Shown one piece after another: positions 11,897-58,300 of a DNA stretch of 64,000 bases. A program made the translations under genes and the position numbers. How positions within the stretch are numbered: position 1 is the first letter of the stretch; the number at the start of each line of letters is the position of its first letter. The stretch is from Arbacia lixula (Eukaryota; Echinodermata; Echinoidea; Arbacioida; Arbaciidae): positions 14,707,105 to 14,771,104 of the forward strand of contig OZ022583.1 in NCBI GenBank assembly GCA_963669155.1, written 5' to 3'. The notes below the pieces were generated by a model. The model did not search any database and was not told the DNA's origin. It saw only the letters and a program-made list of their open reading frames with translations.

Positions 11897-14800
11897 CAAT
11901 CTGCCAGCAAATTCTGAAGTTAATTTCACAGTCACTCAATAGAGCTCAACAGCGGAATATACCTCCAGCCCATTTACATTGCAAGTAACATGTCTGATTG
12001 TGTGTCAATCTCAGCCCGTCCCACGGGTGAGATAAGAGAGCGCATCGAGTTCCAGTGTGTTGCCAATTTAAGATTGTAAATCTGTTTAAAGGTCGGGCAA
12101 ACTAAAATAACAAATTAGCATCTTGAAAATACCAATAGTCGTTTTAATTTTACATTCATGAGGTTAAATTGTTAGAATATTAATTCCTATTTTTTATTTT
12201 AAAACATTCATTATAAGTTTAGCTCAGAGTCTAATTCCTCTTTATGATTATTGATTGGCAGGGGTGGTTGGTACGGTAAGCCCTTGCAAGATCTATGCAT
12301 ACCCAGGACAAAAAAACAGTAAAAACCAGTAGAGAAAAACCATTAGAATTTCTACTGGAAATTTTCTACTGGAAATTTTCTATTGGTTTGAATATGGAAA
12401 GTGAAATGATTTCCAGTAGAAACCATTAGATAGGCTGACCCTATCAATAGAGTACCGAAGTGGTGTTGCATGTGCATGTTGTCAAGACATTATTTTGGTT
12501 ATAAACAAACTAACTCAGTGAGAGGTTTGGCGGTCCGATATTGTTTATCGGGCAAGTGTCGGGCATTCCCAATTACATTCCCCGCTGTGACCACTGCTTC
12601 TACTCGATCTACCCGCATTGTTTATCTGTTGTCTTGACAATTCGGGACTCGTGGCTTTCACCGTGGGGGGGGGGGGGGGGGGGCACAGCCCCCTTCCCTC
12701 CCCCCCCCCCTTCCCTTCCCTCCAGACGTAACACAAATGTGTTTTTTTTTAAATGTTCAAATTAACAGCTTTTGTATAGAATCCAACTGAATTAAAATCC
12801 TTATTTTCAAACTGCAAGGAATATCTTTGATATTTATTTGCAGGTGAAACTACATGTAGGTGTCCATATACTACATTGTGATATATTGATTGGATGAGTT
12901 TAGGCTCTGTGTACATTTGTATGAGCAGTATTTAAAATTTATTTCGGAGGCATCAAATCAGCTAACCGAAAATTCACACTCCTCAGTTAAGCTTTCAAAG
13001 TATTTTAAATAGAAATATGATGAAAGAAATTTGGTTATTATTTGGAAGTGTATATTTCAAGTGTTATATAAATTACTAAAGGAATGAAAAATAATTTTCA
13101 AGATCCACAGCTCGGAGTTTTGTTAGCTATTGTTAACGGAAAATGAAGCCTCCAGAACAACATGTTTTGGAAGGAACATTCTTCCTTTGAGCCCATACGT
13201 GGCACGGCCGAAAAATTATGTGGTCGCAGCATGTGCTTTTCGCGTGATGTTTCAACAATAGCGAACAGGATTGCCTAGCAACGGTTTCTCAGAGAGAACA
13301 AAAGAAATGTAGAGTCTTATTTCGCTTGTCCACTTCTTTTGGATTGCATCAATACTTTTGTGAGGAAAAGAGATATCAGCGAACAAAAATAAACAGCTTT
13401 TTTTTTAGTAAAATATCTCATCTGCACGCAAATTCACGCAAACTCTGTTAATGGTAATAAACCAAGCTTACTATATAATTTTGATAATGATTGAATCCGA
13501 CATTTCCGGAAATCTCCGGAAAGTGAAGAAATTTGTTAATTATTTAAGTAAGAATATTATCTTATATCTCTGTTTGAGCATCATTCAACAATTCTTTAGA
13601 AGAAAAATGAATACAGGATCTTTAATGGTGTTGCCCGTAACTTTCTTGAAAATTACAACAACAAAAATGTGATAAGAAACACACCTTCGAGAAACAAAAC
13701 AGGGAATTAAAGATATTGCTCTCTAAGTTGACGGCAGCAAAATGACGGTGCCGCGCATGGGACTTTAAGGCATTGCAGTGATCGTGGAATGCTTTTGACA
13801 TTCATTAGCACGCTTTAGTATCCATACAGATGTTTGAATATATTATGCTCGAGTTGTCCCTCCTTCTTAACACATCCCTGGGTTCATGCTACCCGAGGTC
13901 CCAATGAGGTCAATCATATGCCACTGTATCTGTGGCTTTATGAAATTGCTAAAGACAAAAATGTTGACATTTCACAGTTGCACCCTGTACTGTGAACATG
14001 ACCATATATATATCAGGTGATTGAAATAACTTAGTGGAAAGACAGAGAGTTAAAAGCAATCCAGATTAAAAAATGTAAAACTTAATTATTTGGTTGTGTT
14101 ATCATGCGCGGCTTCACCTGCATCGAACTAGAACGACCATAATTTATACTACACTATACTGAAACCAGGGAGGTGTTAAAGGAAAGAGAAGAAACTCGAG
14201 CACAATTATTTTCAAACATTGCGTTCTAAAGCGTGCTCATGAATGTCAAAAGCATTCCATATGACAATGCTTTGATGTACTATGTTCGGGGCTGACATTT
14301 AGCTGTTGTCAACTTGAAAAGAAATTTCTTTAATTGCCCATTTGTCTCTAGAAGCTTTGTTTTTGACAAAATTGTTTACAAACTATAAAGAAGTCAAAGG
14401 TCCTAAGACATGAAAATGTATGTTGATAATAGGGTTAATAGGATAATAGACAGAATTTATGCATAAACTAAACTCCACCTGCCCACAAGAGCATCACATG
14501 TCTTCAAACAATACCATCTAACAACCTTTCCTGTGGGAATAATCGTTTCCTCCTTATGTCAGAAATGTTCTAGCTATGCCAATGAAAAACATAAATTTGC
14601 ATTGTATAAACACGTGATGCTATCATAATATCTGAATTGGTAGTTTTTTGTATTTTTTTTCCAAAAACGCACCCCCCCCCCCCCCCCCCCTCCTTGAAAA
14701 AAGCTGGTAACGCGGCACTGGTGCTCTCTATAAGACGGCATAAACCACCTATTCCCTCCGGGCCCCTGGAAATGGTCTCAAACCATTTATTCAAATCTTC

Positions 14801-15299: not shown

Positions 15300-15386
15300 A
15301 TGGCAGACTGCTCTTCTACCCCAAAGTCGGCGCGTCGTGACATGTACAAAAAGAAAACTCCGTCGTGGAAAGATGCGTATAGGAAG
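15300..15386 (+). CDS. RPAIN: RPAIN exon 1 (start codon)
   Basis: ATG at 15300, 29 codons (MADCSSTPKSARRDMYKKK, then TPSWKDAYRK), donor GTAGAT at 15387, phase 0. The frame is open upstream to 15135 with other ATGs, but this start gives a length and beginning like vertebrate RPAIN. A CpG-rich stretch follows at about 15480-15620 inside intron 1, as expected near a transcription start. Confidence 0.9.
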
Positions 15387-18300
15387 GTAGATCTCTCAGT
15401 TTTCATTTTCCTTTCCTTTTGAGGTTGTTATCTCTTCCGTTGCATTGTGAATAGTAAATGAGTTTTATGTTTGACCATTACTCTGCGACAAAGGCAGCGA
15501 GTTAGCGGGGGGAAGGTTTTTGTCAGCCCGCTCGTCTCGGCGATTAATGACATCGGCGTTCGTAGGCAGCGCAGCGCGCAGTTGGATCTACGTGATCGTG
15601 AGTGAGCAGAGACAGTGAGTGGTCAAATTTGAATATTAACTGGCCCCCTCCACTCAGTCTCAGTTGTTTTCCTGCCCAATGCGTCTTATCCAAGTTTGGA
15701 TACCTGCTCTCGCTTCTTGTGAAGCTACGGGTTAATTAACAAGATGCAAGATTCCTGGATCCCGCGAAGTAGATTTAGCCTGCACTTGCCAAGCCCTTCA
15801 TGCCCTTGCATTCAAGTAGGTAGGCCCCTATGGCTATGTGAAATGAAAATTCCAACTTGAAAAGTTTGGTATCAACTGAAAGGTCTGGGAAAGACAAGTG
15901 CAGTAGTTTTTTAATTACTTAAATCGGATTGTTATTAAAGAAATTGCAGCATTTTAAAAATCGCAAAACACTGCTTTTTTGGTAACGGAAATTGTACAGT
16001 ATATCAAGAGGATATTTAAAAATGTTGTGACCAACAATAGATCCGAAACGACCTTAAAAATGACATCATAACTCACATGCAATTGACACGGGTTAACCCA
16101 CAAATCTACGCCACTACTGCTGGCGTAGACCGCCACTGCTTCGCGGTGGAGCTCCTGGGTTAGCTAACGTGTACACATAGTACTAACATGGAAAATGGCG
16201 GAGATTAAAAAAGTACTTTGCAACAATAAATTCTCATCAAGATTTCAAAATGTTTTAAGTATTAATCTAAATCTACTTTTTCAACATTGAAATAAATTCT
16301 ATCACTTTCGGTTCCTTCATGAAGTTTAATCACGATTCCAATGACCAAACATTTTCATCGTTATACTGGCTCGTGTAGAACTACCGGTAATCGTGTTGAC
16401 AAAAAAATTTTGCACACAACAGTAGTTCATGGTCTCGTGTCTTCGCTGATACCTTCTTTGTGCATATTGGCATTAAAATATGAGAACAGCGAAAGCTTTT
16501 GTAAGAGTAGCCCCCTCCTGTCACAACATCAACCCTAGTACAAAACATAATGCGATTTTGGGACAGTTTCGTGATAGCGCGCGCAGAGATTTCACATACA
16601 TACATTGGCCTAAGTTAGTTGTAGTAAGTAGCATGCATGGCTAGGCCGGCGCTAGTTCATAAGTGAAAACCCTGACCCTAACCCTAACCCTAACCTTAGA
16701 CAATGTCTTTGCCATGCCATTGAATTCGTCCAAAAAAAGTGATTTCTGGGTCTACATTAGCGCCTGTTTACTTTAAGCTAGGCCCTAGCCTAGCCGGCCT
16801 AGCCCCGGGACTGCTATGCGACTAGCTACCCGTGACCATGTTGGCGGGGAATGCATGTTTGCGGGGCGTGTATTACCGCACGCACGTAATGTGGACCTGT
16901 GGTCGTGTGTTTGTTGCACGGCGTGTGTGATCGGTTTCTTGTTAGGGGAGGTGTTCAACGGCGCAAAAAAATTGCTTGTGTTATTGTCGCATTTCCCTTG
17001 CTGGGCGGCATGGCTGAAAGGAGTGCTCGCAAAAATGGGGTCAATTTCCTTTGTTTTTCTTTATTCTTGGGCTAGGAATTTGCCTCGCTATAGAAGAAAT
17101 TTTGCTTTAGCTAGGCCCTAGCCTAGCCTAGCTGATATGAGAAGCAGAATACATGGAGCCCTATGGAAGAAAATTTGGGACCCAAGAAATGTCCTCGTAA
17201 TATGAAAAGCGAGTTCTCTCTGTACCCGTACTTGCTATAACAGGGTTTGCCTGTAATACACTACAGGGGAACCCCGTTATAACGAACACGGATATAGCGA
17301 GAACCCCCTTATTACGAGGAAATTTCTTGGGGCCCAATTTTTCTTCCATAGATCTCTGTGTATTCTGCTTCTGATATAACGAGATCGGCTATAGCGAAAT
17401 TTCTGCTAAAACGAGGCAAATTCCCAGCCCAAGAGTGAAGAAAAACAAAGAAAATTGACCCCGTTATTACGAGCACTCGCTTCAGCCACGCCGCCCAGCG
17501 AGGGAAATGCAACAACAAACATCAGCAATGATTTCGCACTGTCAAACACATCGCCTCGCGAGAGACTATCACGCACGCCGTTCAAGAATCTATGCACACA
17601 AAATGACACGTGCAAGAGGGCACATGGCGTGCATGTACTGTAGTGAGAGTACATGGATTTCCTCTCCCTGCGAGCGCTGCAAGAAGGCCATTGCGCATGT
17701 GTCACAAAATATGCGGGGTTTCCCCACTGAAACTTTACGTCATGTAGAGTAAGGCATGGCGCGCGGCGGTGTGGTTCCTTTCCTTACGCATAGCAACACA
17801 GATTAGCTGTCGCTGATTGGTTGGTCGTTCTTGCTTTTGTATGCCTAAGAAACGTACATTGGGAAGGAAGGTTCCAGAATAAAAGGGGTGTGTCTCGTTA
17901 AGTTGAAGTGATTGGGTGAATGTGTGAGGACGAAAGTGGGCTCGACCACAGGTGTAAATATGATTGGTTGTTGTCAAGCTATCACAAGAGTACAAGAGCC
18001 TCGATGTGATGCTAGTGTGTACGATCGTGTACGTGTATGAAGGCGCATTGCGTACACTCAATCATTGTTCACGCACGTTCATGCCAGCGCCAGCATGCAG
18101 GCGCATAATATGTACAATTTACATGTACCGGTAAGTCTCCCCGTTGCTTCATCTGTCGGTAAACGGAGACGTTCGAATGACGTTTATTTACATTTTCAAC
18201 TGTGCTGTTAATTATTTTAGTGACTTTTAAAGCTAGTCATTTCTGTTTGATATGCTTGCAAAGCCCTTAAACGATTACAACACACCTGTACTAGCAGTGA

Positions 18301-21300
18301 ATAGGTCATTGTACATGTGTAGTCCCATATGCATATATATTTCTGTATATTTTGATCATGTACTGATATAGCGAGCAATCGGCTATAGCGAGGAAAATGT
18401 GTTGGTCCCGGCTACCTCGTTATATCGGGGTTTGCCTGTATTTTGATGGGATAAGTGCATTTTTCACAAGGTTAATAGTACACGTATGTTCTTTCATTAT
18501 AAAACTTACTTTATTTTGAAAACTTATTAAAAAATATAGGTTTTCATACCATGGAAGTTTCACCAGATAACGAATGCAACTTCCAATTTTATTTCCTACA
18601 AAAATGTCAAATTTGATATTTTAATCCCTGACAGATGGATACAAAGGTTCAGATGACCACCAACAAATTGCACAAATCATTGATCTTGAAATTTACATTT
18701 GCACATTCCATGAAGTTCTTTATGCAATTCCCTGTGTGCTGTTACTTTACAGAATACAGACTTGCTTTGACATTTTCCAATGTGTTACCAATTTACAGCT
18801 CTAAATAAGTTCTTTGATAAGTTCAATGACTTGTCAATATATGGAGATGCATTGACATTTTACCAATGTGTTGCCAATTTACAGCTCTAGGTTCCTTGAC
18901 ATTTTCCAATGAGTTGCCAAGTTATAGAGCTGCTTTGACATTTTCTGAATGTGTTGCCAATTTACAGAGCTGCTTTGATACAGTGAAACCTGTCTACAGT
19001 TGCCACCCAAGGGAAACAAAAATTGTGGCCTTTATAGACAGGTGGCTGCTATAGACAGGTTCTTAAACACATGATCTCTCTCCGGGGGAATTATTTTAGT
19101 GGCCACTATAGACAGGTTGGCTGCTATAGACAGGTGGCTGCTAAAACCGGTTTGACTGTATTTTCAAATGTGTTGCCAATATACTGAGGTGCATTGACAT
19201 TTTCCAATGAGTTGCCAATTTACAGCTCCAGGTGGTTTGACATTTTCCTAAGATGTGTTGTCAATAAACAGAGATGCATTGACATTTTCCAATGTGTTGC
19301 CAATTTACAGAGGTGCTTTGACAGACTGCGAGGGAGTAGGGAGAGCCTGCTACAGAGGTTCCGGGGCTGCGCTCCACCCACCTCCCCCTCCGCCATGGGC
19401 CCGACCTGTCGCATCGGCAGCCCCGCTGTTCCAGGCCTTCTTGTGGCCCAGGTCATGGAGGAAGAGTGGAAATTGCTCAGAGAGAATGACCCGTCCTTTG
19501 GGGTAAGTGGAAATATAGATGTACATGTAGATCATACGACAATATAATTTTCTCATCCAAATAAGATTATTTTATTTTGATTCTTTTCTAAAATTATGAT
19601 TGAAATTGATTTTATAATGTATGTATTGTAAGTGAATGTTCTTTGAAATACAGTTCTTTTAGGCTAAGAGGTCGGCACCTCTGGGGACCAACCATGACAC
19701 ATGGTGGTCACTGTTTCAAATCAATGATGACAGAAATAAGAAGTGCAGAAATGCAACAATAATAAGTATTGCAGAAATAATCTAATTTTATGGGGCTTTC
19801 TCTCTTTGGCCCATGCAGTCACATGTACATAAATGCTGGTAAAAGCTGTTATTACTAATTTCACTGTTATTTGTAAGATGGAAACGAACTGTTTGTCATA
19901 CTTAGTTGGTGTAGTAGATTGTCACTGTCACCATCAAACTGAACTTTACTGTGTTTTGAATTTGCAATTGCAATTGCAAGTCGGCAAATGTGTTGGACCT
20001 GTAACACAGTGCCAATGACAAGTGGATAACCCACGTTATGAACCAGTAACAAATCTTCACTGAAGTCGTTGTCATAACATTTGTTATGATGAGGTTCATG
20101 TTTCTATTTTTATTCCCCCGTAGATGATAGATGATGAAATGGACCTCAGAGAAGAACTACAAGAGGAACTAATGAAAGAAGGTAAAATTTTGTCTTTGGA
20201 TCAAGGAGAATCCCCAAATTGATTACCATTTGTATGCCTTCAAGACAAAGTGTCACTGACATTTTAGCTATCTGTCCAGGCAACGGACAAGCAAACTTTA
20301 GTTCTTGTCAGTGTTTAAAGGGCATATACTGTACTGGGAAGGCAAAAAAGCCTTCAAAATGTAATTGTTAGCAATCTTCCTGCCAATGGTCTTAAATTCA
20401 TGAATTGTCTATTTCAGAAGCTTGCTGAAAGTTATTTGCCCTCAAATGATCTACATTTGGAGTAATGAGTGATTAAATCACAAATCCTCAAAATGTTCGG
20501 CCCAAACATTTTGAGGATTTCATCATTTATTATTGATTACTCGATATGTGGATCATTTGAGGGCAAATAACTTTCAGCAAGCTTCTAAAATAGACAATAC
20601 ATGAATTTAAGACCATTGGCAAGAAGATTGCTAACAATTACATTTTGAAGGCTTTTTTGCCTTCCCAGTACAGCATATGCCCTTTAAGCAGTCAAATTTG
20701 TCTAGTTTGAGTGTGTTAGAGTGATAGTCTGCTATGCTTTACAAGTCATTCTCAAATGAGAATGAAGTGTGAATTGAAGAAAATACATCTAAGGAAGACC
20801 AGAGTATTCTGTTATGAGGCACCATTCTTCACAGAGTGGCGCATGCCTGCTTTGCGCTTGATCATTGAGCTTGTTTTTTACATGGGGAAAAAATGGCTGC
20901 CTTCACGTTCGTGATGTTAAGGCGGTACAGCGCATGGTAAACACCCTCCTACCATGCAATGCACAGCCCCAACGCACTCACAACTGTGCATTATTTGTAT
21001 ATTGGTGCATAATCGGCACAAGAATAACATGCAACTCTCATAGAGGAGCACTTTTTTAGCACTGAAAGGGTTGATTCCAATCTGATTTTGTTCTGTGCAG
21101 AGTTGAGCATCATACAGGAATATGAAGCCAGCCTAAGACTGGAGGAAGCACAGCTGGAAGCTGCTGTCAGCCAGTTCACTGAGGACTCTGTCATCTGCCC
21201 TCTATGCCAGAGGTGAGTGCACTGTTGTAGCCAGAAGGCAGCGCAGATTGTCACCCCCTCTCCCTCCCCCCACCCACACACCCAAGCTTGTAACAGCTGC

Positions 21301-24300
21301 CTCTTAAAAACATTTGTACACATGGCTTTTCCAATATGAAATATGAAAAGACCTTCATAAAAGTTTTTTTTTCTGGTGAGCAACCTGGAAGGGGAGGGGG
21401 GGGGGGGGGGTGGTGGTGTTGGGTTGAATAGGGGTGATCACTAGAAAATATGTTATGCATGGTTGAAAAGGGAAGGATGTTAGATATCTGTGCTAAATGA
21501 GAGGTTAAAGACTGTGGAACACGTGTGTGGTGCCAAGAGAGCACAAACAATCAAACTGAGAATTTCTACATTCAGTGAAGTAACTTTATGCGACATGTAA
21601 TCAGCTTTTCCCCCAACGCACATTGCAAACCCACCAAATGTTTTATAAACCTCCTTACTTTAATTGCCAAGGGTGAATTGATTAACAGAGAAGAAATTAT
21701 AAGAACTGGGTAAATATCATTATGCAGACAGAAAGTCGATGCTCTGAAGCTTTTAGTGGTGTTATTGCAGGTGTGGCCAAATTTGATTGCAGTGCATATT
21801 TGTGCATTGAATAAGCCTAAAAACCTCATGAACAATGCATGGGCACACACGTGCATGGCCTAAAAAAAAAATCAATGAATATTTTCTGGGGATTTCAAGC
21901 CTCATGTCTCAAAACAAACTCATTGAATAATGATGTGCATCATTATTTCCATACGGGCTGTTTTTTTTTTTGCATTTCTGGGCCTATATCTCTCTGCATC
22001 CACTGTCTTATTTTTTTCACTGCATTTTTACATTTTACAATGTAGCCAAAATCATAAAACCTGCATGTTTATGTAAGTAAGACCTGAGATTCTAAAAAGT
22101 CATTTTTGTCTCGCCTGAACGAAGTTCGGTAGAGACCTAGTAATCATTTTTCCTGTTAGTCTGTTGGTCTGTTGGTCTGTTACAAAAATGTTAAAGTTTT
22201 TATTTGACTTGCATTCATTTCTTTATTTTTGCATCAATTGTGATCTTTCTTGGTACAAATGATCCTTGGGTAATACCATGTGTGTCTTCATGAAGATGAT
22301 GGGGTCAAAGGTCATCTAGGGGTCAAAAGGTCAAATGATATGAGGCCATGTGCATCATTTTTTCTCAAAAGTTTTTGTTTGACTTGCATTCATTTCTTTA
22401 TTTCTGCATCAATTGTGATCACACTTGATACAAATGATCCTTGGGTAATACCACATGTGTCTCTTCATGCGGCTGATGGGGTCAAAGGGGTCAAAAGGTT
22501 TGAAAAACATATTTGAAAAAAAACTAAGCACTGTTTATCGATTGCGAAATCAGGCGAGACCCGTGGTTCGCAAACCACCTTGTTGGAATTTCTATGGTTT
22601 TGTTGTTGTTCTCATCACAGGAACCGGCTTCTGCTGAACAAAGGCATCGTGTTCTGTGCCTGCGGACTGAGGGTAGACACAGAGGTAAGGTACACGCACA
22701 AAGGGTTGATCTTGCCACTTGCACATCCTGGAAGATTCACTTCCTTGGGGCTTCAATAACTTTCTGCTCATTTTGATGTTGATCTTGATTTTAAAGACAG
22801 GGTGTCCCAGTCGCAAAAGTCATGAAAGTCTGCTGGAATCAGCAGTATACCCTAACGATAATGTGTATGAAATCTCAGTCGTAGCATCACAAACCTTTGC
22901 AGGAAAAGTGAAAAAGTATTGATGTTTACATTTGAAACCTAGCAGCCATAGTCGTGTTGCCCCTATCAGAGCACGATGCACCGTGCATAGTGGGCATGCC
23001 CCCATTGAACTCATGCACTGTGGTGAGGACCATAGCGCACAGCGGTCTCCGATGTCTAGGCTAATACATGTGGGTCTGTCTACAGTAAAGGGATATTTTT
23101 CGGCACAACTGAATCATTTAAAATTATGACCACCTTCCACCACCAAAATATTGAATATTGAGTGTTGAATTACGTCCAAAATAACTTCAGCTGAAATCCT
23201 GCTCTGAATGTTCATTATTATATATTTCTAAACTTAGCATGTACATATTTGCCATATCACAGTGGTAACAGGACAGACGAGTGTATTTCAAACTCGTCTG
23301 TCCCGTTAACAACGTGATGTGGCAAATTTGGTTTATTTAAGAGACAAAAAATAATTGGAATTTAAGATATTTATGCAAATGTTACAGTAAATGTAACTGA
23401 AATGAACCCATTACTGTGGACAGGCCCATGCACATGTAGGTTTCGAACGACTTGCCGAAAGTCTCAAAATCTCGCAACTGCTATAATTTTACTTCAAGTC
23501 AATTTCTAGTTCTATTATTTGGAGGGAAGTTCTAATACAGTATCTTGTTCCATTTTCAGTGTTTTTTTTTTTTACACAACTTTATTTTTTAGACCTGTGA
23601 AAGGGACACATTATCTTTAATTTGTGTTTATATTGGATGGCCATTACAAATACAAAGCTGTTCATATTTTCTAACCAGTCAAAAGAAATAGATTTTCCCC
23701 TGGATGCTGCCCTCTAAGATTTTTGGATGGTAAGAGTTACCCAAACCCATGCAATAGGGCAAGGGCAGAACTCAGTGATGTCTATAAAGTTATTAGAAAG
23801 TGTCACAGTACTACACAAGTAGAAACCCAAGTTTACAAGAAGGAGGAATGAGAATTGGTTGTGTATTTAAATCCTGTAGATTTACTAGTACATGGAGTTA
23901 TCAAGGCCATCTAATATGAGAAATATTTGCTGATAGGGGGTGTGACATAACATTATTTAGTGAATATCTGTATATCTGTTATGTGGACAAAAAAGAAGAA
24001 ATGACATGGCATACATATTAAAGTGGGACATTAATGTATTTGATTCATTCTAAGGATAGGAGAGTAGGAGCTGGCATTTATTTCTGTTATATTTGTTGAT
24101 AGGTTTATTCATCAACCCACTAATCTCCTTGATAAAACCTAAACCCAATCCTACATATAACCAGAACAGCAGTTGAACCTAGCCTCACATTTTTTCTTTC
24201 CCCCTGCATATATACAGCAAGATGGTCTGAACCTGCGGAACGTTGGGGATAGTCTAGACCATGGAGTCCAGCAGCATAGCTCCACCTGCCCAGCCACACC

Positions 24301-25497
24301 AAGCTTTGGCGTCTTGGAGCTGGAGGAGATGCGCAATCTGATCATGTCTTGTGAGGTGGGTATTCATTAAAGGGTTACTAAATTAGAAAAATAAGTTCCC
24401 ACTAATCTATGTAAAATTATCCGCTAAAAACAAATTTCACATTCGTTTGCCGCAATAAAGTCTCATTTTGACGATAATTTGAAAAAATGCATGCCCAATT
24501 CCATAGATGTACGTAAATCAACAATAGACCATTTTCATTTTCACAACTTTCCCCCTAACTGCGTAGTACGCGTTATTGCATTCACCTGTAGCTTGTCATT
24601 CAGATTCAATGGATGGAATGCACTTTGAATCTATTAGTTATTGCTACTCAGACAAACCTTGGACGAGCTTTGGGGTTCCCATTGGTAACGTATTGTTTGA
24701 ATTGCATGAATAAAACATTTTATTTACGCCGTTGGCATTTGTGAAATTTTGACTTCTCATACGTCATTGGAGGTATGCGTTTTTTCAAATTTTCGTCAAA
24801 ATGAGACTTTATTGCGGCAAACGAATGTGAAATTCGTTTTAAGTGGATAATTTTACATAGATTAGTGGGAACTTATTTTTCTAATTTAGTAACTCTTTAA
24901 CCCTCTTTATGCTGTGTGAACATTTTTTTCATATTTGATGCACATAAAAGTATAATTTTGTCAGGCACATCAGGGGTTAAAGGGCAATGCAACCCTGGTG
25001 ATATTTGAATATTATAATAGTTGAAAAATCACAGAAAAAGAATGGTGAAAATCAGACACTTTATAAGAGAGACATTAATATCCCCCAGAGAAGCACAATG
25101 GAATACCATATGAAGTTTTCGTAAATTATAAATATGTTCATTTGTTTGTAACATTCAGTTCATCTATCTTACAAAACAATATGTTCTGTACAGTTCTGTG
25201 TTTCTCATTAAAGCTGAAAAGAGGCAGCAGTAGATTTATTTTTCTTAGTTTGCAGTAAAATGGAAGTTTGTACCAACATGACTATAGGTAACATGTGTGA
25301 ATATTTAAGATTCTGTTCTTACATCTTACATAACAATATTTCATTTCTGTGAGTAAACTAAAGTGGAAGAGAGTTGGCAGCAGAGTTTAATTCTTAATAC
25401 TGGAAAATGGAAATTATGAACCAATGATAGTATATGTGCCTTATGTTTGTTTCTCTTTTTGACACAGGCCTGTGGATTTTTACACATAGTGATCTGA
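15300..25497 (+). CDS. RPAIN: RPA-interacting protein (RPAIN / RIP-alpha), complete, seven exons
   Basis: Exons 15300-15386, 19311-19502, 20124-20181, 21101-21212, 22621-22684, 24218-24355 and 25468-25497 join to 681 bp, 226 codons (human protein: 219). The layout fits the family: a basic start with PSWKDAYRKRC (human PPWKEAFRQRC), RGSRESLLQRFR, the conserved VMEEEW box (residues about 78-83), an acidic middle (IDDEMDLREELQEEL), IIQEYEASL, and a C-terminal zinc-binding part. The ligand residues are visible: CPLC (145, 148), CAC (162, 164), H191/C195 and CEAC (216, 219), and the chain ends HIVI. From work on the Xenopus protein, RIP-alpha carries replication protein A into the nucleus by binding RPA and importin-beta. 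Every exon junction keeps phase, and no stop or missing ligand is seen, so the gene looks intact. Confidence 0.95.
16638..16830. repeat. Repeat block with TTAGGG tract, also at 4901-5070
   Basis: Contains GGCGCTAGTTCATAA, a CCCTAA tract (16670-16698), and GTCCAAAAAAAGTGATTTCT. The last parts are the reverse complement of 4901-5070 (AAATCACTTTTTTGGACGA). The tract is four CCCTAA units where the other copy has one. It directly adjoins the truncated pogo-like copy. Confidence 0.7.
16835..17253. mobile_element. Truncated, inverted copy of the pogo-like element
   Basis: Its right end is GTTTGCCTG followed by TA (17254-17255). Read on the minus strand, it matches the start of the element at 17264 over about 400 bp (for example CCAGCCCAAGA and GCTGGGCGGC phrases), with roughly 80% likeness by eye. 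The two lie back to back with 8 bp between. The left edge is uncertain. Confidence 0.68.
17264..18438. mobile_element. Pogo/Tigger-like element (1.18 kb, non-autonomous)
   Basis: Ends CAGGGGAACCCCGTTATAAC and the inverse CAGGCAAACCCCGATATAAC, with TA on both sides (17262-17263, 18439-18440). Such ends are typical of pogo/Tigger elements. No transposase frame is seen inside. Confidence 0.78.
18765..19323 (+). repeat. Tandem array of the RPAIN exon 2 acceptor region
   Basis: About eight units of roughly 40-46 bp, each near TTGACATTTTCCAATGTGTT followed by GCCAATTTACAG and then AGGTGC or a variant. Units start near 18766, 18850, 18896, 18935, 18974, 19192, 19236 and 19277. Unit five is split by a TA-flanked mini-element. 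The last unit's ATTTACAG is the true acceptor of RPAIN exon 2, and its AGGTGCTTTGACA is the first 13 exon bases. Several other units keep AATTTACAG intact. Confidence 0.9.
18981..19158. mobile_element. Pogo-like TA-flanked mini-element inside the acceptor array
   Basis: 178 bp with ends CAGTGAAACCTGTC and the inverse of CAGTCAAACCGGTT, flanked by TA on both sides. Internal text is made of repeated TATAGACAGGTGGCTGC-type phrases. A second copy in inverted orientation lies at 44493-44666. Cutting it out with one TA restores an array unit (GCTTTGATATTTTCAAATG). Confidence 0.82.
19311..19502 (+). CDS. RPAIN: RPAIN exon 2
   Basis: A 64-codon exon, phase 0 at both ends, with acceptor AATTTACAG at 19310 and donor GTAAGT at 19503. 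It codes RCFDRLRGSRESLLQRFRG, a Pro/Ser/Ala-rich linker, then VAQVMEEEWKLLRENDPSFG. The later AG at 19323 would break the frame, so 19310 is the true acceptor. The acceptor and the first 13 bases of this exon form the last unit of a tandem repeat that fills the preceding 550 bp of intron. Confidence 0.94.
20124..20181 (+). CDS. RPAIN: RPAIN exon 3
   Basis: A 58-bp exon coding the acidic segment MIDDEMDLREELQEELMKE plus one base of the next codon. Acceptor CCCCCGTAG, donor GTAAAA. It matches the IDMAVLEEIQQELINQE segment of human RPAIN. The extreme acidity fits the central importin-beta-binding region reported for the family. Confidence 0.9.
20319..20683. mobile_element. TTAA-flanked palindromic element, family A copy 1
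   Basis: 365 bp between TTAA sites, with ends AGGGCATATACTGTACTGGG and its inverse. The two arms are nearly complementary throughout and meet at TGTTCGGCCCAAACA. The target is as used by piggyBac and Kolobok families; the first bases (AGGG) fit Kolobok-type ends better than the CCY of piggyBac. Confidence 0.88.
21101..21212 (+). CDS. RPAIN: RPAIN exon 4 (first zinc-ligand pair)
   Basis: Acceptor TTCTGTGCAG, donor GTGAGT. It codes ELSIIQEYEASLRLEEAQLE and ends at VICPLCQ, which holds the first Cys pair (145, 148). The human counterpart is EQSIISEYEKSL to LICPVC. Confidence 0.93.
22109..22560. repeat. Interspersed repeat with internal tandem unit and DR1-like words
   Basis: Bounded by GTCTCGCCTGA and its inverse TCAGGCGAGAC. 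It holds two copies of a unit of about 175 bp (22195 and 22370: TTTGACTTGCATTCATTTCT, GATCCTTGGGTAATACCA). The units contain GGGTCAAAGGTCA (22302-22314), a direct-repeat-1 nuclear-receptor consensus, and GGGTCAAAAGGTCA just after it. Confidence 0.7.
22621..22684 (+). CDS. RPAIN: RPAIN exon 5 (second zinc-ligand pair)
   Basis: A 64-bp exon, acceptor CTCATCACAG, donor GTAAGG. It codes RNRLLLNKGIVFCACGLRV plus DTE, with Cys162 and Cys164 matching VVVCQCGLSI of human RPAIN. It starts only 60 bp after an interspersed repeat (22109-22560) ends. Confidence 0.93.
22795..23616. mobile_element. TTAA-flanked element, family E copy 1 (carries an insertion)
   Basis: Ends AGACAGGGTGTCCC and GGGACACATTATCT, TTAA on both sides. 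It matches 47168-47577 in inverse orientation (CCCCCATTGAACTCAT, CATAGCGCACAGCGGTCTCC, GGGAGGGAAGTTCTAATACA-like words) but is about 400 bp longer. The extra part is roughly 23090-23425 and includes a hairpin (23249-23326). Confidence 0.8.
23249..23326. repeat. Hairpin
   Basis: GCCATATCAC and GGACAGACGAGT are mirrored by ACTCGTCTGTCC and GTGATGTGGC, with a loop of about 10 bases. Confidence 0.65.
24218..24355 (+). CDS. RPAIN: RPAIN exon 6
   Basis: A 46-codon exon, phase 0 at both ends, acceptor TATATACAG, donor GTGGGT. It carries HSSTCPATPSF (H191, C195; human HSAHCPHTPEF) and ends LIMSCE, the first Cys of the last pair. A TTAA-flanked foldback element begins 15 bp after the donor. Confidence 0.93.
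24371..24896. mobile_element. TTAA-flanked element, family B
   Basis: 526 bp with inverted ends of about 120 bp (AGGGTTACTAAATTAGAAAA and AGTTACTAAATTAGAAAAAT on the other strand), TTAA on both sides. It begins 15 bp past the donor of RPAIN exon 6. Confidence 0.87.
25468..25497 (+). CDS. RPAIN: RPAIN exon 7 (stop codon)
   Basis: Acceptor GACACAG, then ACGFLHIVI and TGA at 25495-25497. It completes the CEAC pair and matches the human end LACDTWAVIL. The 3' UTR follows directly. Confidence 0.9.
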   Translation, partial: ACGFLHIVI

Positions 25498-43300: not shown

Positions 43301-46300
43301 TTTCCTAAGACTGTGTTTCGTATTGAAACCCATATAAAAAAAAATATGTGCATGTGAAGACGGCATTGCTTACAAAATCTCTCTTGAGCGGTCTTAACAT
43401 ACAGGTTGTTGTACTAAGCAGTGGCTGTTTACTAGTAAAGAATGGTTTCAACTTCAGCATGAGATAGATGATCATCAACGTCCCCCCCCCCCCTCCCCCT
43501 CTTCCCCAAGCATCATTCCTACAATTATACAAATGCATATTACACAAACATGTAGATATTGATAGGTGCAAACAAGTTGAAGGATATACAGAGGGGCTCG
43601 AGGCAATTTTATCAGCCCCCGCAATGGAAAAAGAGCCCCCTAGAATGACGAAAGAACACCTGTCACAACAAATCCCCATTTGGTATAATGCAAAAGATGG
43701 TTCGGGGTGTTCAATTCATGATTCAACTTACCACCAATGGTAACTACCATGGCAACAGGTGAAATAATGAGAGCTCATTGGCCATTGCCATGGCAGTTAC
43801 CACTGATGGTAAGTTACAATAATTGGAAACCTATACATGTACATGTATGCACTATGGCCCAGGTTTGAAAAGAACCCCCTGGCGTACATGTATCTATCAA
43901 TCTTAAAGTGTTTTCCCTGGTGCACACAAAACAGGCACATCAAACTTTACATCTTTCCAAACTTTGCTAACAAAACAGGTAGGCTCAAGCTCCCTAATGA
44001 AATACTAGTAATGATATGAAAGTAGAAATGAATCAAAACCAACATGCACTCTGATGTTTTCTCCATCTAGTCCCCAAGGGTGCTATCTGAAGAGGGTGCT
44101 AGAGAAACAAATCCAGCAGATTCATTCAGCTTACAGATATAATTACGGCTTGGCAGACGGTGCTATCGATCCTTGATAAGTTGAGCTGATATTTCCTGTA
44201 TCTCGAGATTGACATCTCAAAATCGCATCAAGAGATATACAGCACGTCAGTCTGTAAATGATTGCAGAATTCAATGTGCAGGGGGAAGTCGATAGCTCTA
44301 CACATCTTGGATTTTTAAGCCGAGGGATATTTATCATTAGTTTCTTTGAAAAATAAGCCATCGTGATCATGTTGAGACATGAAAAAAGCTACTCACATAA
44401 TCCAGTGGTTGAATTAAAGAAATTAGTTGAGGGCTAATGTTTTTGTAAACATGCACTGAACTATACACATGCATGCCAAATAAGGGCAATTACAGTCAAA
44501 CCTGTCTTAGTGGCCACCTGTCTATAGCAGCCAACCTGTCTATAGTAGCCACTAAAATAATTCCCCCGGAGAGAGATCATGTGTTAAAGAATCTGTCTAT
44601 AGCAGCCATCTATAAATGCCACAATTTTTGTTACCCTTGGGTGGCCACTGTAGACAGGTTTCACTGCACACATACCTGTGACATTGAGCAAAATTAATAG
44701 AACGTGAAATTTGTGTAAAATTGAAAGGAGCATTGAACAGCTGTGACTTACCATATGTTTGTACGTTGCAGGGAGGACCTTCTTAAGGAGACCAAACAAG
44801 ACTTCTCCATCCACCTGGACTGCCTCTAGACCAGGGCTGTAGTAACCTGTCAGGTACCGCTCACAGATCTGGACCAGGCACCAAAATGCCTCCTGAGAAG
44901 TTGCAATAGATATCAAAGAAACCAGATAAAGTTAGGAACCGTGAAATATATACATGTAGACTGGGCTTCATGAATATAACCAGAGTTTACCATTCCAAGT
45001 CCTTAAATTCAACGAAATACAACTTGATAAAAATGTTGAATAAGACTTCAATTTGTTCACAGCACACTTCATGAATGAAAACTACAAGCTCCCCTTAATG
45101 GCCATCTTAAACTTTCTCAATGATGTCTCCTTTGAGGGCAGCACCTCATTTCTGGAAAGGGGAGGGGGGGCAGGAATAAAAGAATAAATGTATTCATTTC
45201 TTGTCCTGAAGGCTGTTTTCTTTTTATCTTTTCCCACTTTATTCAGCACTTCTTAGAGGTGAAATATGCACAAAGACACTAGTGTTTCAATGGTGATGAA
45301 TGAATCCAGTTTCACAGCACAAGTTTGTAGAAAACAGAACTCTATGAATCAAATCAACTGTACGATTTCTTCACTTAATCACCTTATATAAATACAGCAT
45401 ATGGTTGCACCTTTTGCATGAGTGAGAGAGTGTGCCATACTTAACCTGAGTCATAATGTAAGGTGTTGTCTTCACACTTTTCTCTTGTCTATTAAGACAG
45501 AGGTGACATTTGCCAACAAATCACCATCTCTATAATACCAGGACAGTCCCATTACTACATGTATGAGCGAAGGGGTGAGCATATCAAAATCATCTCCTCT
45601 GCACCCCGCCAAAGTTTTGCAGGAATTGATAATTTCCTTCTTAAATTTCCAGTTTAAATCTAATGGCCACCACAGCTGTCTACCCTCTATTTCTGGAGAG
45701 AAAAAATAGCCCTGTTTTCATAAGAAAGGTCATTGCAAGTTTGACGTCTTTTTAGTCTGCTCCGTGACTAGTTTGTGGTCAGTCGGGCAGTGAGTGAATG
45801 AGCCTGCATTGCAAAGGCTAAGGCTCATCTTCTGTATGTAGAGGAAACAGACAGTTTCCACTTGATGTTTCTATCTATAGTTGTTTCAACATATCAAAGG
45901 TAAGGGGCAGAAAGATGTGGTAAGTTACATCACAGGACCTGAAATCATGACAGAGTCTTTCTGCCACTGACCATGGGTCCCATTCATGATGGATTTCATG
46001 GTCACAGGAAGGAAACATCTCAAGATGATACCATGCTTTAAACCAAATCAGGCCACTGGTACATATAGGTTCTCAATTATTGTAATTTATCATCAATCGT
46101 AACTACCATGGGAACAGCCAATAATTCATTATTGCACATGTTGCCGTGGTTGTTACCATGATATGGTAAGTTCCAATTGAAAGCCTACATGTATTATGCC
46201 ACATGGCCCAGATCCAGACCCGCAATATTGGCAGAACAAGTCCACTATGATTATGTATGCATTAATCATTACCAACACTATCTCTTGATTTTAAGTTCAG

Positions 46301-55300: not shown

Positions 55301-58300
55301 AGTGTTTTGGTTCTCACAGTTGAAGCTGAAAACATTTCTTGCAAAAATTGCATCAATTGCCATGACACCAGCGATGACATGGCTGGCAAACTTTTGTGAA
55401 AATGCACCTAGCACAACTATTTTTTCCATGTCCCTTTTATGTGACAGAACTTCAAAAAATTCAAGGTCTTGTAATCCCTGACAAAATAGTTTTGCTACAT
55501 AAACATGAAAAAAAATTAAAAAGTTACATCCATGCATTTTCTTACAGCACTGAAGTATATTGAAAAAGGTACCATTAAGTGTAACGTAGTAAATCATGAA
55601 ATTGCCCATAAAAGGACTCATGAAAATTGTATAACAGTACTAGTAGTGTGAAGTCAATAAAATAAACAGTAAATCACTCTATACTGCCCGGTAGACTTTA
55701 AAGACCACTAGACAGGTTTCATGTACATGTCACTCTCAGTTATGCATGATTAATCTTAAAACACTTCAGTGCTGTAGACAGATGTGTCTCCGTTCATCTG
55801 AAGTTTCTGATTAGTAAAAGAAAGTGTCTGCATAAATTAGCCAAAAAGAGCACAATATTTTGTCTGTCCCAAATGTAGGTTACAGGCCAGAGGCCTCCGG
55901 CTAATGTACATGTAGTTGTGTCATTCTGGAAGTCTTCTTGATCCTTAAAGATTTTGATAACATCAGATTGGGGATAGGGGCTAATTTTCCAAGCTTGATA
56001 TCATAAAACAAGGACACTGAACCATGATTTTACCCTGGCATAACATTCATATGAGAAAAAAAACAACGTTTTTTTTTTGTGTGTGAGTTCACAGCCCTGG
56101 GCTACATTACCACGAGCCCCCAAGTATCTGTTTTCAAGGACACAATTTTCACATTGCACATGTAGTGTGCCCTCTTAATTGCGAATAGTCTACAAATTAG
56201 GGGGATTATTGCATGTCAAGTGCAGCATTTACAAAATGAACTCAATATACTTCCCAGGCTAAGCAGCCATGTACAGCAGCATACTGTAACACGCGTACAG
56301 TGGCACACTATTTCCGTTCTCAATTATTTCCGTCTTCAAGCGGTATAGTACCTTCTTCCCATTGGCATATTTCCCAGAACAAAAATGTTATTTTAAGGGA
56401 TGATGCTACTATTTGTAGCACTTTGGTACAGTATATACAAATCCGTATGCTCTACAAATAAAAATTTGAATGGGGGCTCAGGGCATTTATGCCCCCCACA
56501 AAAAAACAGAAAAGAGCCCCTCTGAAAATGTTCACATGTACATGTGTATATTGTACGCATATGTTTGCTATACAATGCCAGGATCGAAAAGGAATTCCCT
56601 AAAAATGTATCCCTTGTCTAATTCCCCTGCTTCATTGAAGTACCCTGAAGAGGCCCTCTGGAAACGCGATCATGATCATGTCTCTGTAATGGACCAACAG
56701 TTTACGTACACCGGGGTATTGCATGTAGAACCGAGGAATGTTTATTACAGGTCACACAGCCTGCTCAGATAGACAGGCGGTACAATACTACATAAATACA
56801 CAGTGAGTCATTGCATTCAATGTATGCAGGCACTTGCAAGAAGAACATATTGCTCTTATGACCACATATTGTACATCAAGTACATGTAGTATGCATAATG
56901 ACGTCTGGACATATAACGTACCATGTAGAATAACCACTATTCAATAGTCTATATATGTAGCATAAGGTGTACATTGGTTATCACTAGTCTGTAGACAGAA
57001 ACTCATTCCACTGTCTTCAAACTTCTGGCAGATATAAGTATAAGATAATACTCCCATGTAGAATAACCACTATTCAATAGTCTACATATGTAGCATAAGG
57101 TGTACAGCCTAATCACTATTCTGTAGGCAGAAACTCATTCCACTGTCTTCAAACTTCTGGCAGATAAGACTAGCGCCAGACTTGTCAGTTGTGATGTTTA
57201 GAATCATCAAACAAGTGACAACGAGGGTTCACAGTCTGCAAACTAACCACCACTATCATAGTGTACTGGGCTAACCGAGCCTGCATGTACATGTACATGT
57301 CTAAATTTTCACAGTACATGTATGCACAATGTACAGGACAATAAAAGCCAAGTGTAAATTGTAGGTTATTGATTGTACAGTCGTGTAATTTATTCTAACA
57401 CATAAGGAAGTGTACATGTATTATGTACTTGAATACATGTACAAATGCCAATGTTCAGAGTAGTATAGGTAGACACATCCTCCTCAAGTTAAATTTATGG
57501 AAGTTTTGATATGTACAAATTAACTGTTCCACTGATCAACTCACTGAGTCATTGCTGAGTCCAGACAGACAGTGTAGTTATGATTGCAGTTTAAAGGGGA
57601 AGTTCACCCTGAAATTATTTTGGTTTCAATAAAACTTTAAAATCAAATAACTTTCTTTTCCTTTGACCGATTTTTGTCAAACCTTCACTCACATGTTTCT
57701 TTATTTGTCTCCTTTTATTGAAACCAAAATAATTTCAGGGTGAACAATCCCTTTAAGAGACTCCACAGCCTAGGACATAGCCTACACTGTACATGTAGGC
57801 TCTACCACACAGGCCACCAATTAAATCTCTCTACAATAGAGGGAATCAACTTATCCTTCAGGTTCAGACCCAAAGTTAAGTTAAGAACAGCATTACATGA
57901 GACTGCAAGGCAAAATTTAGCCTAGGCTTTCTTTATCTCTACACAAAGATGCACTTACAATGTAGTCTTTCTGTCCAGACTTAGTCGTGACTACAGCAGA
58001 GCATGAGCCTAGAGTTAGGCTACAGCCCTTGCTCACCTGTATCCCTGGACCAAATGCCAGCAACAAAAGTAAGGATATGAGAAACTTCCTGTGGAAGCTA
58101 AGAGAGCACACTGGTAGCTAGGACAGGCATTGGGTCGATGAAGTCCTACGACCTACGCGTTACGCACACTTTAAGACTGATAGTGTCTTTTTAAGCTTTT
58201 CTACATAAATGGCTAATCTTTCAAAATGGCTGGCACATGCAGGTGCAAAACGCCTGGGCCCTGTTTTATAACAAATTTTTTGATCGTAACTTCTTTTTTA

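What the first reader, a model, noticed from the sequence alone, without database searches (positions are those of the whole stretch)
18765..19323. Row of copied splice acceptors in front of RPAIN exon 2
About eight tandem units each contain a copy of the junction: GCCAATTTACAG followed by AG(G)TGC-TTTGACA. Only the last is the true acceptor. Its exon half codes Arg-Cys-Phe-Asp, which matches conserved Arg-Cys-Leu-Glu in human RPAIN, so the exon sequence came first and the array grew leftward into the intron. At least four upstream units keep an intact AATTTACAG. The gene therefore offers a ladder of decoy acceptors about 45 bp apart, which could cause alternative 5' ends of exon 2 or slow splicing.
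Basis: partly seen in the sequence, partly recalled or inferred. Interest (0 to 1): 0.72.

Follow-up and report, generated by a model that had tools for sequence, protein, structure and literature searches.

The report
Tandem copies of an RPAIN splice junction
In what looks like a sea-star genome, the short DNA stretch where intron 1 of the gene RPAIN meets exon 2 has been copied about nine times in a row, leaving a row of look-alike splice sites before the one needed to make the protein; whether the look-alikes are ever used was not testable here.

Summary
Nine tandem units (18763-19313) end RPAIN intron 1; each carries ~26 nt of intron end and ~13 nt resembling the start of exon 2. AATTTACAG occurs five times in 64 kb, all here: four upstream units plus the true acceptor. 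Joined exons 1+2 match Pfam RPA_interact_N without a gap at 52.8 bits, fixing the true junction at 19310|19311. A 32-base unit pattern (up to 3 mismatches) hits nothing else in the 607-Mb genome.

Corrections: intact copies are ~85 bp apart, not 45; a 178-bp MITE splits unit U6; only 3 of 8 upstream units have AG plus an AG-free branch-point consensus; 22 of 23 upstream YAGs lead to an in-frame stop, the other adds 13 codons. 'Grew leftward' is unsupported: a strong acceptor-like site at the left edge may be the stranded original.

On a rough recalled matrix the true acceptor is weaker than three others of the gene. Use of the decoys is untested: no RNA. Precedents: ABCA7 donor-site VNTR; junction duplication in a potato gene. 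New variant of a known kind.

The parts
15300..15386 (+). RPAIN exon 1, coding part (29 codons, ends in phase 0; donor GTAGAT at 15387)
   Evidence: PF14766 positions 1-19 here; translation
18724..18762 (+). Left flank with a strong acceptor-like site (AG 18751-18752; a second AG 18758-18759 is in phase with ACT TGC TTT GAC); candidate for the stranded original acceptor
   Evidence: 97.3 percentile of AGs in the window with an AG-free branch consensus; the only one of 112 YAGs in 15388-19324 this good. Not among the unit-profile hits shown (list cut at E about 11)
18763..18809 (+). Unit U1 (AATTTACAG intact, AG-free branch consensus)
18810..18847 (+). Unit U2 (acceptor lost: TATGG)
18848..18891 (+). 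Unit U3 (AATTTACAG intact, AG-free branch consensus)
18892..18930 (+). Unit U4 (TATAG, weak, AG between branch consensus and acceptor)
18931..18970 (+). Unit U5 (AATTTACAG intact, AG-free branch consensus; same rough score as the true acceptor)
18971..19189 (+). Unit U6, split by a MITE (acceptor lost: ACTG)
18981..19158 (.). 178-bp MITE inside U6, TA target duplications at 18979-18980 and 19159-19160
   Evidence: 40 scored places (this one included) of 1621 first-look candidates; of 20 fetched places, this one included, 20 are full length and 17 have TA on both sides
19190..19232 (+). Unit U7 (AATTTACAG intact, AG between branch consensus and acceptor; a further YAG at its end, exon start 19232)
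19233..19274 (+). Unit U8; its AATAAACAG (exon start 19272) is the only upstream YAG tested that keeps the frame open (+39 nt, RCIDIFQCVANLQ)
19275..19313 (+). Unit U9; holds the true acceptor AATTTACAG|AGG at 19310|19311
19311..19502 (+). RPAIN exon 2 (192 nt, phase 0, starts Arg-Cys-Phe-Asp; donor GTAAGT at 19503)
   Evidence: PF14766 positions 20-37 from residue 1; joined exons 52.8 bits

Best explanation
A boundary minisatellite. A 39-bp segment across the intron 1/exon 2 junction of RPAIN (about 26 nt of intron end plus the first 13 nt of the exon) was tandemly duplicated, in part as ~85-bp dimers, and later interrupted by a MITE. Inferred: because exon 2 begins TGC TTT GAC, each copy also carries TTGAC or a variant, which fits the branch-point consensus yUnAy 27-28 nt before the next AG; so U1, U3, U5 and the true U9 each look like a small branch-point-plus-acceptor module, and the only such motif found with no AG before the true acceptor is itself a copy of exon sequence. 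Inferred: splicing chiefly uses 19311; leakage to upstream copies would mostly give premature stops (probably degraded mRNA), and one weak copy (19272) would add 13 codons. The array most likely arose without function and is tolerated.
For: Units and boundary. Exon/intron junction by Pfam and frame. Unit confined to the locus: 4 hits at up to 3 mismatches in 32, all in the array, 0 for the reversed control. Residues R, C, F weigh in the family profile, so the exon half is probably the older copy. AG-free yUnAy in U1, U3, U5, U9; background 319 of 3470 YAGs (9.2%), counted with a spacing of 18-40 that all four also meet. 22 of 23 upstream YAGs give an in-frame stop; of the 23, 8 lie in array units, 11 in the MITE, 4 to the left. 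True acceptor 84.5 percentile against 98.8, 98.9 and 96.9 for three other acceptors of my RPAIN model (weight matrix recalled, not trained here).
Against: No RNA data: use of any decoy is unshown. Five of eight upstream units lack AG or have an AG between branch motif and acceptor, as expected of neutral decay. On the rough matrix the true acceptor ranks only 28th of 112 YAGs in 15388-19324, so the matrix predicts use poorly. The intron half resembles a 21-nt core of an old dispersed repeat (93 places outside the array within 2 mismatches), so part of the unit may come from elsewhere, although the unbiased profile gives only E 0.56-0.76. No related species could be compared.
Confidence: 0.65

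Rival explanations
1. Stranded-acceptor history (the same array, a different order of events). The original acceptor is at the left edge (18753 or 18760). A ~21-nt filler flanked by a duplicated ~18-nt junction (TACAG+AGG+TGCTTTGACA) was inserted, then expanded; the new acceptor arose in the filler and the exon body stayed to the right.
For: The left flank has a 97.3-percentile acceptor-like site with an AG-free branch motif, the only one of 112 YAGs in 15388-19324 that good. The array begins and ends with the exon 10-mer TGCTTTGACA. Joining the flanks (18772 to 19324) reads T-C-F-D-R-L-R-G after TACAG, against R-C-F-D-R-L-R-G in the gene.
Against: The strong AG (18752) is 7 nt out of register; the in-phase AG (18759) scores only 81.5 percentile and has no AG-free branch motif, so a small TACAGA duplication must be assumed. 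The first codon is Thr, not Arg. The idea was formed after looking; coincidence is roughly 1% (density 4.4e-4 per base, times ~20 bases).
Confidence: 0.4
2. Neutral intronic minisatellite: the copies are never recognised and do nothing.
For: 5 of 8 upstream units lack a complete module; 2 of 8 lost AG (and the unit sequences). A MITE landed in the array and stayed.
Against: U5 scores the same as the true acceptor on the rough matrix, and the true site is weak for this gene.
Confidence: 0.45
3. The unit is (part of) a dispersed repeat that carried its tandem units in, and the exon start was overwritten by it.
For: The core TTCCAATGTGTTGCCAATTTA has 99 places within 2 mismatches, 6 of them in the array, against 0 for the reversed control; an old dispersed family carries a similar core.
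Against: The unit pattern is confined to the locus (no indels allowed). With 29 copies chosen without regard to the unit, the match is 21 nt at E 0.56-0.76. The E 2.3e-7 is circular: those copies were picked by likeness to the unit. The exon half encodes residues that weigh in the family profile.
Confidence: 0.1
4. Assembly artefact or chance similarity.
For: One assembly only.
Against: Units differ by 0-32% over aligned columns and one is split by a distinct MITE, unlike a simple duplication error; speak against chance.
Confidence: 0.03

Closest known systems
ABCA7 intron-18 VNTR (human, 25-bp unit; PMC5954066, ten passages read)
   Same: Tandem repeat that starts at an exon edge and includes the real splice site; a cryptic site one unit away is used, retaining one unit and shifting the frame.
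   Different: There the donor is repeated, here the acceptor; there usage and length variation were measured, here neither; here the unit also includes exon bases and a branch-like motif.
Potato RdRp junction duplication (PMC4974935, abstract and Results and Discussion read)
   Same: Tandem duplication across the end of intron 1 and the start of exon 2, carrying putative branch site, tract, AG and an exon piece.
   Different: There one extra copy made a new intron supported by RNA reads; here about nine short copies, no new intron shown.
Intron sliding and proto-splice-site duplication in Drosophila (PMC2891723, twelve passages read)
   Same: Duplicated or cryptic junctions shift an intron boundary or make an intron while the protein is kept.
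   Different: Recognised there by comparing species; here a multi-copy array in one genome.
New introns with weak splice sites backed by nonsense-mediated decay (PMC2809761, abstract read)
   Same: Weak site plus stop codons in the mis-spliced product.
   Different: Here an existing intron would be lengthened; no decay data.

Membership tests
RPAIN gene (Pfam RPA_interact_N, PF14766) | Match over the curated cut-off (28.8 bits) | tested here: met
   52.8 bits, positions 1-37 of 39, joined exons; each exon alone is below the cut-off
RPAIN gene | C-terminal RPA_interact_C domain downstream on the same strand | tested here: met
   28.0 bits (cut-off 25) at window 24218-24358
Minisatellite/VNTR overlapping a splice site | Tandem array whose unit contains the real splice site | tested here: met
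   U9 holds 19310|19311
Minisatellite/VNTR overlapping a splice site | Copy number varies between individuals | not testable with these tools
   one assembly
Alternative acceptor array | Upstream copies are spliced to in RNA | not testable with these tools
   no RNA reads
Alternative acceptor array | Upstream copies have AG plus an AG-free branch consensus | tested here: inconclusive
   3 of 8 do
Intron gain by tandem duplication | New intron with its own donor, absent in relatives | not tested
   AGGT occurs at 8 places in 18700-19330, but use was not tested
Dispersed repeat element as source of the array | Whole unit present at other loci | tested here: not met
   only a 21-nt core elsewhere
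TA-target MITE (the inserted element) | Many copies, terminal inverted repeats, TA duplication | tested here: met
   ends CAGTGAAACC and GGTTTGACTG are inverted repeats at 9 of 10 bases, read from the sequence

The most novel reading that the evidence does not exclude
A self-propagating acceptor array: because the first codons of exon 2 happen to spell a branch point (CTTTGAC), every tandem duplication of the junction makes a complete new branch-point-plus-acceptor module, so copy number sets how much RPAIN mRNA is lost to premature stops, a length-variable rheostat on an RPA-interacting protein.
Probability: 0.12. Interest if true: 0.65.

Novelty: new variant of a known kind. Interest (0 to 1): 0.4.

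Why it matters
It is a compact natural case of a splice acceptor multiplied in place while the protein is kept intact, the mirror image of the ABCA7 donor VNTR. If individuals differ in copy number, it gives a clean test of how the spliceosome chooses among near-identical acceptors and of whether exon bases can become the branch point of the next copy.

Tried and rejected
Dispersed-repeat origin: looked strong (99 places against 0; profile E 2.3e-7), but those copies had been chosen by likeness to the unit; with 29 copies chosen by likeness to L055 instead, E is 0.56-0.76. Kept only as a possible source of the 21-nt filler.

An older tenth unit at 18724-18762: not among the unit-profile hits shown (asked for E up to 50, but the printed list was cut and ends at E about 11). 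A hit at 12049-12070 (E 0.0023; 0.035 with the unbiased profile) was not explained.

Growth direction by divergence gradient: none seen.

Own slips, redone: the first MITE alignment mixed orientations, so its identity column is unusable for several rows (redone); the first joined-flank test was off by one base (redone); one search took exons 3 and 4 one base late (rescored) and ended them one base late, so the tail of its translation is wrong; one search joined exon 1 with three intron bases too many (an extra Val). One search translated the mitochondrial stretch out of frame and was not used. The exons between 21213 and 24217 were not worked out. Model R1 was built but found no use.

Literature: seven searches around repeated or duplicated splice sites, one on RPAIN splicing (20) and one on intron gain (49); in the titles and abstract openings listed I saw no acceptor array like this. 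Open-licence PMC papers only.

Full report
What is there. The window lies in a 607-Mb, 590-contig genome. A 15.7-kb contig holds mitochondrial COX1 in which TGA is read through 12 times, and AAA (2 of 2) fits Asn and AGA (3) fits Ser; judged against conserved COX1 positions that I recall, this is the echinoderm code. Hits fell on contigs C1-C22, 18-56 Mb where a length was listed; this and the genome size suggest a sea star (inference). No tool named the species.

Gene model. PF14766 matches two exons, 15330-15386 (profile 1-19) and from 19308 (19-37), each below the cut-off alone; six other weak matches lie elsewhere. Joined, the two exons give one ungapped match, 52.8 bits against a cut-off of 28.8. 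Exon 1 ends in phase 0 at 15386 (Lys); exon 2 starts AGG TGC TTT GAC at 19311 and ends at 19502. The C-terminal domain lies at 24218-24358, the only one of two matches over the cut-off. So this is RPAIN, apparently single-copy. The exons between 21213 and 24217 were not worked out.

The array. Nine units, U1 to U9, fill 18763-19313. U1, U3, U5, U7, U9 keep AATTTACAG (5 of 5); U2, U4, U6, U8 do not (0 of 4), which with the 83-86 bp spacing points to dimer amplification (inference). Identity over aligned columns is 68-100%. U6 is split by a 178-bp element with TA duplications: 17 of 20 fetched places, the window's own included, have TA on both sides, and the other 19 are 94-96% identical to it; they were the best of 1621 candidates, so the true spread is wider. 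Since the element sits inside a unit, it came after the array (inference).

Chance. AATTTACAG occurs 5 times on + and 0 on - in 64 kb, all in the array. A 32-base unit pattern at up to 3 mismatches has 4 hits in the genome, all in the array, and 0 in the reversed control; the tool scores only best candidates and the pattern allows no indels.

Which came first. Ala substitutions in the joined protein cost 2.3, 3.9, 2.5 and 0.2 bits for R, C, F, D, against 8.4 for the Trp of exon 1 and 8.6 for a later Arg. R, C and F thus count in the family, moderately. RCLE scores 54.7, better than the RCFD present (52.8). So the exon start is probably ancestral and was copied into the intron. All nine units carry GAC or GAT at the fourth codon (in U6 the last base is the MITE's target duplication), so copying followed any change from a Glu codon (inference).

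Splicing signals. With a rough recalled weight matrix, the true acceptor is at the 84.5 percentile of AGs in the window; exon 3, exon 4 and the C-domain exon are at 98.8, 98.9 and 96.9. U5 equals the true site, U3 and U1 are slightly lower, U7, U8 and U4 lower still; extra YAGs at the ends of U3 (18891) and U7 (19232) score higher, 92.3 and 96.5, but without an AG-free branch motif. TTGAC lies 27-28 nt before the AG in U1, U3, U5, U9 with no AG between; U4, U7 and U8 have an intervening AG. The true acceptor ranks 28th of 112 YAGs in 15388-19324, a count that includes it and one AG inside exon 2, so the matrix alone does not predict use.

Reading frame. Exon 1 ends in phase 0, so each upstream acceptor can be read directly. 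Of 23 upstream YAGs from 18635 to 19272 (4 left of the array, 8 in units, 11 in the MITE), 22 reach an in-frame stop; 19272 adds 39 nt, RCIDIFQCVANLQ. That insertion splits the RPA_interact_N match and lowers it to 44.8 bits. The AG at 19323-19324, 14 nt inside exon 2, is also out of frame.

Left edge. TTCCCTGTGTGCTGTTACTTTACAG just before U1 is the only one of the 112 YAGs at its score or better with an AG-free branch motif (56 of 7503 AGs on both strands of the window are). Joining the flanks gives T-C-F-D-R-L-R-G. This suggests the original acceptor was left behind, but the strong AG is 7 nt out of register, the in-phase AG is weak, and the idea was formed after seeing the data.

Dispersed repeat. 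The intron-half core has 99 places within 2 mismatches, 6 of them in the array. An old family (719 first-look candidates, 40 scored) carries a similar core. An unbiased profile matches the array over 21 nt at E 0.56-0.76 only, so descent is not shown.

Verdict. Known precedents (PMC3443670 seen in twelve passages) make it a new variant of a known kind.

Noticed in passing
window 20312-20690: Large inverted repeat in RPAIN intron 3: 189-nt arms, 90% complementary, 1 nt apart.
   Followed up: partly
window 18981-19158: 178-bp MITE family, 1621 first-look candidates, TA target duplications.
   Followed up: yes
window 44499-44551: Tandem 18-bp repeat AACCTGTCTATAGTAGCC that resembles, by eye, the inside of that MITE.
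   Followed up: no
window 11996-12133: Possible weak member of the old dispersed repeat family that shares the 21-nt core with the array (profile is biased).
   Followed up: partly
L055 1400-1700 and L066-L094: Old dispersed repeat family, 71-77% identical over the longer matches and 82-91% over short ones, 719 first-look candidates; class unknown.
   Followed up: partly
window 56921-57166: Tandem duplication of a 132-bp unit, 1.9 copies, 92% matches.
   Followed up: no
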